This document shows positions 42,357 through 42,446 of a DNA stretch of 64,000 bases, piece after piece. The stretch is from Prevotella sp. (GTDB lineage: Bacteria > Bacteroidota > Bacteroidia > Bacteroidales > Bacteroidaceae): NCBI GenBank assembly GCA_015060535.1, contig SUYH01000003.1, forward strand, positions 124,001-188,000. Direction: 5' to 3'. The position numbers and the translations under genes are program-made. Below the pieces are notes generated by a model, which made no database searches, was not told where the DNA came from, and saw only the letters and a program-made list of their open reading frames with translations. Each line of letters begins with the position of its first letter. The stretch's first letter is position 1.

Positions 42357-42446
42357 CTAGTAGAACTAGTATGACTAGTATGTCTAGTATAGCTAGTATA
42401 ACTAGTATGACTAGTAAGACTAGAGAGACTAGTAAGACTAGAAAAA
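42357..42446 (+). repeat. 9-bp-period CTAG array C (10 perfect units), immediately after pgi stop
   Basis: CTAG at 42357, 42366, 42375, 42384, 42393, 42402, 42411, 42420, 42429, 42438. Confidence 0.97.

What the first reader, a model, noticed from the sequence alone, without database searches (positions are those of the whole stretch)
42357..42446. CTAG array C: ten perfect 9-bp CTAGNNNNN units filling the pgi-HAD gap
The array starts at the first base after the pgi TAA and runs as CTAGTAGAA CTAGTATGA CTAGTATGT CTAGTATAG CTAGTATAA CTAGTATGA CTAGTAAGA CTAGAGAGA CTAGTAAGA CTAGAAAAA, then AAAATG. CTAG is invariant at exact 9-bp spacing while the other five bases drift from TANNN to purine/A-rich towards the start codon. 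Simple slippage would not be expected to keep four bases fixed while the rest varies with a directional gradient. It suggests selection on CTAG, or on UAG in RNA.
Basis: seen in the sequence. Interest (0 to 1): 0.85.

Follow-up and report, generated by a model that had tools for sequence, protein, structure and literature searches.

The report
Genome-wide CTAG arrays at 9-bp spacing
In about half of Prevotella species, short DNA stretches between and inside ordinary housekeeping genes carry the letters CTAG exactly every nine bases while the letters in between vary almost freely, which suggests that an unidentified DNA-reading protein holds this pattern in place.

Summary
In detail: ten CTAGN5 units at 42357-42446 fill the pgi-HAD gap. 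It is one of 43 arrays (3 or more units) found in this Prevotella-like genome. About half lie inside housekeeping ORFs (RNase R, RF2, UvrA, ClpB). Arrays occur in 99 of 200 genus genomes, with the reversed (GATC) control near zero, and in 2 of 398 other sampled Bacteroidota.

Three results argue against slippage. (1) At 16 of 17 loci compared, a relative at about 78% nucleotide identity has an array at the same position, CTAG intact, but with different N5 and unit number. (2) In that relative, the 9-mer is a 6-bp palindromic core (TCTAGA or ACTAGT, never mixed within an array) plus three near-random bases; adjacent triplets match no more often than chance. (3) In prfB, a four-unit array arose by point substitutions without any length change, mostly Leu codons becoming the rare CTA.

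Best explanation: selection on CTAG in 9-bp register as double-stranded DNA, most likely a platform for a cooperatively binding dimeric protein. Binding and physiological role are inferred; no trans factor was found and TrpR is excluded. A role specific to HAD translation is unlikely: the pgi array is absent in the closest species, and equivalent arrays lie inside ORFs.

The parts
42357..42446 (+). Array C: 10 units of CTAGN5 filling the pgi-HAD gap
   Evidence: shorter arrays sharing the first two units in G074 and G007
36563..36643 (-). Array A: 9 units of CTAGN5, between a 217-aa gene and the next gene start on the minus strand
37340..37447 (-). Array B: 12 units of CTAGN5, directly after a SpoIIE-phosphatase-like gene on the minus strand
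41001..42356 (+). pgi, glucose-6-phosphate isomerase (PF00342); its stop codon abuts array C
42450..43187 (+). HAD-family hydrolase gene (PF13419); start codon 3 bases after array C
42442..42449 (+). A-tract between the last CTAG and the ATG, probably a translation-initiation leader (inference)
   Evidence: similar A-rich leaders downstream of other intercistronic arrays

Best explanation
The arrays are genome-wide DNA elements in which a palindromic core (XCTAGY, usually ACTAGT or TCTAGA) in exact 9-bp register is kept by selection, while the three bases between cores are nearly free. Shown: the register; CTAG invariance with diverging spacers at the same positions in two species; creation of one array by in-place substitution inside prfB; two non-mixing 6-bp dialects in one genome; lack of strand preference in G010. 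Inferred: the selecting agent is a dimeric DNA-binding protein whose copies pack side by side only at 9-bp spacing and coat the arrays cooperatively, and the roughly 40 arrays serve as scattered chromosomal docking sites (most likely nucleoid organisation or partition), placed wherever the sequence tolerates them: intercistronic gaps and permissive protein loops. Array C is one such site and is not a dedicated regulator of the HAD gene.
For: CTAG at 9-bp spacing only. 16 of 17 G000/G007 loci have arrays at the same place, CTAG intact, N5 and unit number changed. prfB: ungapped alignment of 30 species; four related species have 4x CTAGN5 where others have ordinary codons, e.g. CTT GAT CTC CTG GAA AAG CTG GAG in G035. 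CTA is 4.5% of Leu codons in the window and 1 of 15 CTN codons elsewhere in the compared part of G000 prfB, but 4 of 4 in the array; across those species CTAG 0/16 sites variable, N5 10/20. KdtA: a 16-residue loop with or without the array (protein level). G007: 0 of 42 arrays mix TCTAGA and ACTAGT, shuffle mean 22.4, minimum 13 of 5000; adjacent NNN identical 2.9% against 3.4% by chance. Asymmetric G010 dialect in both orientations.
Against: No binding protein has been identified. TrpR, which binds a similar core (from memory), is absent over cut-off from all 200 genus genomes. Single arrays are lost easily: the pgi array is missing in G354. CTAG decays in some RNase R arrays. Many coding arrays sit in loops whose length varies between species, so insertion also contributes. 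In G000 adjacent NNN identity (11.3% vs 3.8%) shows some unit duplication. In prfB alone, post-origin invariance of the four CTA wobble positions is weak evidence (half of third positions vary elsewhere). G010 flanks are not palindromic. GC-skew sampling in G010 did not link arrays to origin or terminus.
Confidence: 0.58

Rival explanations
1. The arrays are ordinary slippage-born microsatellites or insertions in permissive sites, with no selection on CTAG.
For: Relatives carry other tandem repeats or palindromes at the same RNase R, fucose-enzyme and pgi sites. Unit number varies between species. Higher-order 18- and 27-bp repeats occur in some species. Some unit duplication in G000.
Against: Spacer triplets in G007 are independent draws while the core is fixed. 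The prfB array arose without length change. CTAG intact in 143/146 enclosed units while adjacent N5 identity is 59%. By contrast, CTAG-containing repeats in viral contigs have 85% N5 identity and 39% damaged middle CTAGs.
Confidence: 0.12
2. The motif spreads by transfer bias, like DNA uptake sequences: DNA carrying the array is preferentially taken up or recombined, so the core spreads into tolerated sites and forms species dialects.
For: Core plus dialects, dispersal into ORFs of housekeeping genes and in-place substitution resemble DUS (PMC3630211). Clustering in a 100-kb part of G010 fits regional exchange.
Against: DUS are thousands of copies per genome whereas these are about 40 arrays with strict 9-bp register; I know of no uptake motif described for Prevotella.
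Confidence: 0.13
3. The arrays act in RNA: UAG/CUAG repeats in mRNA bind a protein, or fold, to control translation or decay of the downstream gene.
For: Intercistronic arrays in G000 sit between co-directional genes, just upstream of start codons. RNA folds score below shuffles (z -4.1, -3.6, -6.3). TAACTGA repeats were proposed to act this way in Beggiatoaceae (PMC4679880).
Against: About half of the G000 arrays are inside ORFs. Both orientations of an asymmetric dialect occur. Palindromic flanks suit DNA better. Spacer pairing does not exceed unit-order shuffles, so the folding follows from the self-complementary CTAG.
Confidence: 0.1
4. A selfish copying or conversion process uses CTAG as its anchor, so CTAG is kept by the replication mechanism and not by benefit to the cell.
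For: Patchy presence, gain and loss, decay of CTAG in some old arrays, shared bigrams slightly above shuffles (20 vs 12.9).
Against: Spacers in prfB keep native residues, which a copied tract would not; almost no shared three-unit words between loci.
Confidence: 0.07

Closest known systems
Dispersed heptamer direct repeats (TAACTGA in Beggiatoaceae, Cyanobacteria and some Bacteroidetes, PMC4679880; cyanobacterial STRR)
   Same: Short tandem arrays at many loci, often between stop and start codons, sometimes in ORFs, patchy between species.
   Different: There the whole 7-bp unit is repeated. Here only a 4-6 bp palindromic core is fixed in a 9-bp register with free spacers, positions are conserved between species, and one array was built by substitution.
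DNA uptake sequences with dialects (Neisseriaceae DUS, PMC3630211)
   Same: Invariant short core, species dialects, dispersal through the genome including ORFs.
   Different: DUS occur in thousands of copies per genome (PMC3630211); these are tens of arrays with strict spacing and no known link to transformation.
Tandem operators of oligomerising ribbon-helix-helix proteins (MetJ 8-bp boxes, Omega heptads; from memory, not tested)
   Same: Cooperative dimers on short direct repeats with a palindromic core would require exact register and leave spacers free.
   Different: Those are few operators at promoters or centromeres; these are about 40 arrays per genome inside operons and ORFs, with no identified protein.
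TrpR operator (ACTAGT half-sites; from memory)
   Same: Same core sequence.
   Different: TrpR is absent over cut-off in 200 genus genomes, and its half-site spacing is 8 bp, not 9 (from memory).
Rickettsia palindromic elements and similar in-frame insertions (from memory)
   Same: In-frame repeats in surface loops of housekeeping proteins.
   Different: Those are insertions of a longer element; the prfB array is not an insertion and N5 is free.

Membership tests
Slippage microsatellite / STRR | Whole repeat unit homogeneous; neighbouring units alike by duplication | tested here: not met
   G007 adjacent NNN identity 2.9% vs 3.4% chance; N5 identity 59% with CTAG 143/146 intact in G000
Slippage microsatellite / STRR | Arises with length change | tested here: not met
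   prfB array ungapped against 26 array-free orthologues; other coding loci do vary in length
DNA uptake sequence | Hundreds to thousands of dispersed single copies | tested here: not met
   43 arrays of 3 or more units; CTAG in the window is below the Markov expectation (63 vs 120) even with arrays included
DNA uptake sequence | Raises transformation | not testable with these tools
   needs uptake assays
TrpR operator | TrpR encoded in the genome | tested here: not met
   0 of 200 genus genomes over cut-off; E. coli and B. subtilis controls positive
RHH-type tandem operator | Palindromic core repeated at fixed short spacing | tested here: met
   XCTAGY core at 9 bp in G000 and G007; palindromic flanks not met in G010
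RHH-type tandem operator | Cognate RHH protein binds the array | not tested
   no candidate protein identified
cis-acting RNA element | Conserved paired structure beyond the repeat core | tested here: not met
   spacer pairing equals unit-order shuffles in three genomes; no Rfam match at the array

The most novel reading that the evidence does not exclude
A chromosome-wide system in Prevotella and scattered gut or rumen Bacteroidales and Verrucomicrobiota/Lentisphaerota, in which unidentified palindrome-reading proteins with lineage-specific dialects keep tens of 9-bp-register CTAG arrays by selection, to the point of rewriting codons of essential genes such as prfB.
Probability: 0.4. Interest if true: 0.9.

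Novelty: new variant of a known kind. Interest (0 to 1): 0.8.

Why it matters
If the arrays are binding platforms, Prevotella, a dominant gut and rumen genus, has a chromosome-wide DNA-protein system that is not described in the literature I could search. The array sequence is a ready bait to find the protein, and array-positive and array-negative sister species give natural controls. It would also be a clear case of nucleic-acid-level selection overriding codon choice in essential genes.

Tried and rejected
IS or transposon footprints and CTAG-overhang fill-in were considered and dropped once prfB showed no length change. Copying of array segments between loci: only 2 shared three-unit words. 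RNA hairpins: spacer pairing equals shuffles. TrpR: absent. Origin/terminus organisation: G010 arrays cluster at 1.60-1.70 Mb of contig C3, but GC-skew sampling was not decisive and the region is also rich in heptamer repeats. A ParA-like gene beside a G010 array looked like a centromere lead, but arrays there also flank unrelated housekeeping genes. Viral contigs: matches are ordinary repeats with decayed CTAG. My early idea that CTAG and N5 decay equally (RNase R) was overturned by the G007 comparison. Literature searches found no description of these arrays, but the library lacks most subscription journals.

Full report
What is there. The array at 42357-42446 is exactly as described. It is one of three in the window (A 36563-36643, B 37340-37447, C) and one of 43 arrays of at least three units in the fetched loci of a 2.94-Mb genome. 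The genome handle is G000; by its relatives it is Prevotella-like. CTAG pairs in these loci occur 188 times at 9 bp, 2 times at 8 bp and 3 times at 10 bp. The reversed pattern, which is GATC at the same spacing, gives none in G000.

Where the arrays are. About 21 of 43 lie inside ORFs with coding signal on both sides, in frame, 19 of these in the phase xCT AGT NNN = (Thr/Ser-Ser-X)n. By my reading of the flanking sequence the hosts include Era, ClpB, UvrA, Tex and ABC-F; Pfam confirms RNase R, RF2 and a fucose-pyrophosphorylase-domain protein. The intercistronic arrays that I could place lie between co-directional genes, often running from a stop codon to an A-rich leader before the next ATG. 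G010 also has arrays between convergent genes, flanked by inverted heptamer arrays.

Distribution. 99 of 200 sampled genus genomes have four-unit matches (0 to 189 per genome), the reversed control being near zero; 2 of 398 other sampled Bacteroidota do. A few hits elsewhere (for example Paenibacillus, Mesorhizobium) are homogeneous repeats, not this class.

The pgi-HAD gap in relatives. Of 29 relatives, G074 and G007 have a shorter array whose first two units (CTAGTAGAA CTAGTATGA) equal those of the window, G358 has a CTAGAATAT version, G331 a degenerate one, and the rest have none, including the closest, G354. In G354 the gap holds other short repeats. The same is true of permissive loops in RNase R and in the fucose enzyme: different species have CTAG arrays, heptamer arrays, GC-rich palindromes or nothing at the same spot. 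So a single array is dispensable and these sites tolerate many repeats.

Evidence for selection on CTAG. (a) I fetched the arrays of G007. Of 17 loci with a G000 counterpart compared, 16 have an array at the same position in both; CTAG is intact, N5 and unit number differ. This is a minimum estimate of sharing, because only array-bearing G000 loci were in the comparison, and it is ascertained on intact arrays. (b) G007 arrays split into TCTAGA (27) and ACTAGT (14) classes with no mixed array, against 22.4 expected. Information is 2 bits at C, T, A, G by construction of the search, 1.0-1.3 bits at the two flanking bases and 0.1-0.3 bits in the remaining three; adjacent triplets are identical no more often than chance. 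Duplication would have made them alike. In G000 there is some duplication signal (11.3% vs 3.8%). (c) prfB. Thirty orthologues align without gaps. G000, G007, G138 and G189 have CTAGN5 x4; the other 26 have normal codons with the same length. From a G035-like sequence (QVVLDLLEKLEL) the change to LVALDLLEGLEL needs three synonymous CTN-to-CTA changes and one Gln-to-Leu. CTA is 4.5% of Leu codons. Within the four species CTAG has 0 of 16 variable sites and N5 10 of 20; correcting for codon position, the post-origin invariance alone is only suggestive, so the weight lies on the origin by substitution. (d) KdtA homologues have a 16-residue loop of constant length with array-like (LExLDx) or other sequence, consistent with (c) at protein level only.

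DNA or RNA. In sense-oriented non-coding arrays of G000 the flanks are symmetric (first spacer base T 56/77, last spacer base A 56/77). In G010 the asymmetric ACTAGG/CCTAGT dialect occurs in both orientations relative to genes. Arrays fold well as RNA, but spacer complementarity does not exceed unit-order shuffles in any of three genomes, so the fold is a by-product of the self-complementary core. This favours recognition of double-stranded DNA by a dimer.

Mechanism. The simplest cause of an exact register with free spacers is side-by-side packing of a dimeric DNA-binding protein. This is inference: no protein was found, and TrpR, whose half-site resembles ACTAGT, is missing from the genus. 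I prefer a chromosomal docking role over classical gene regulation because the arrays avoid promoter positions in G000 and lie in unrelated housekeeping genes. A transfer-bias origin like DNA uptake sequences, whose core-plus-dialect pattern is similar (PMC3630211), is the rival I would test next.

Comparison with what is known. Heptamer repeats such as TAACTGA (PMC4679880) are the nearest described genomic class and share location and patchiness, but there the whole unit is repeated. RHH operators share the presumed binding logic but not the genomic scale. I rate it a new variant of a known kind (dispersed short-repeat arrays that probably act as protein-binding sites), and state the stronger reading as the novel case.

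Noticed in passing
window 4572-4609, 7823-7850, 8538-8569, 19465-19496, 32464-32488, 61694-61722: Several homogeneous 7-bp tandem arrays of different sequence, a second class of short repeats in the same genome.
   Followed up: partly
L383-L389 (G010): CTAG arrays sit inside intergenic hairpins whose arms are inverted heptamer arrays (GAGTTGA / TCAACTC); both are concentrated at 1.60-1.70 Mb of contig C3.
   Followed up: partly
L069, L074, L059, L372: Other 9-bp arrays with a different fixed core plus variable bases in relatives: CCTATGAGW, CCCATGAGT-like, AGGACTNNN, CTCAGAGNN.
   Followed up: no
L020:1569-2573: Era-like protein in G000 has, beside the CTAG array, a second insert LTPDPSPKGEG of a GC-rich palindromic type.
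   Followed up: no
L384:14888-16365: ParA-like ATPase and an unassigned 184-aa protein separated by a run of CTAG sub-arrays with irregular spacing in G010.
   Followed up: partly
window 61743-61839: TPP riboswitch on the plus strand.
   Followed up: no
window 54320-54554: 33-bp repeats, apparently an Ala/Lys-rich coding repeat.
   Followed up: no
L083-L202: Some other species have CTAG pairs at 8-bp multiples as well (8, 16, 24 bp), hinting at a second register.
   Followed up: no
window, whole: CTAG occurs 63 times where a Markov estimate gives 120, and about half of these are in the three arrays.
   Followed up: partly
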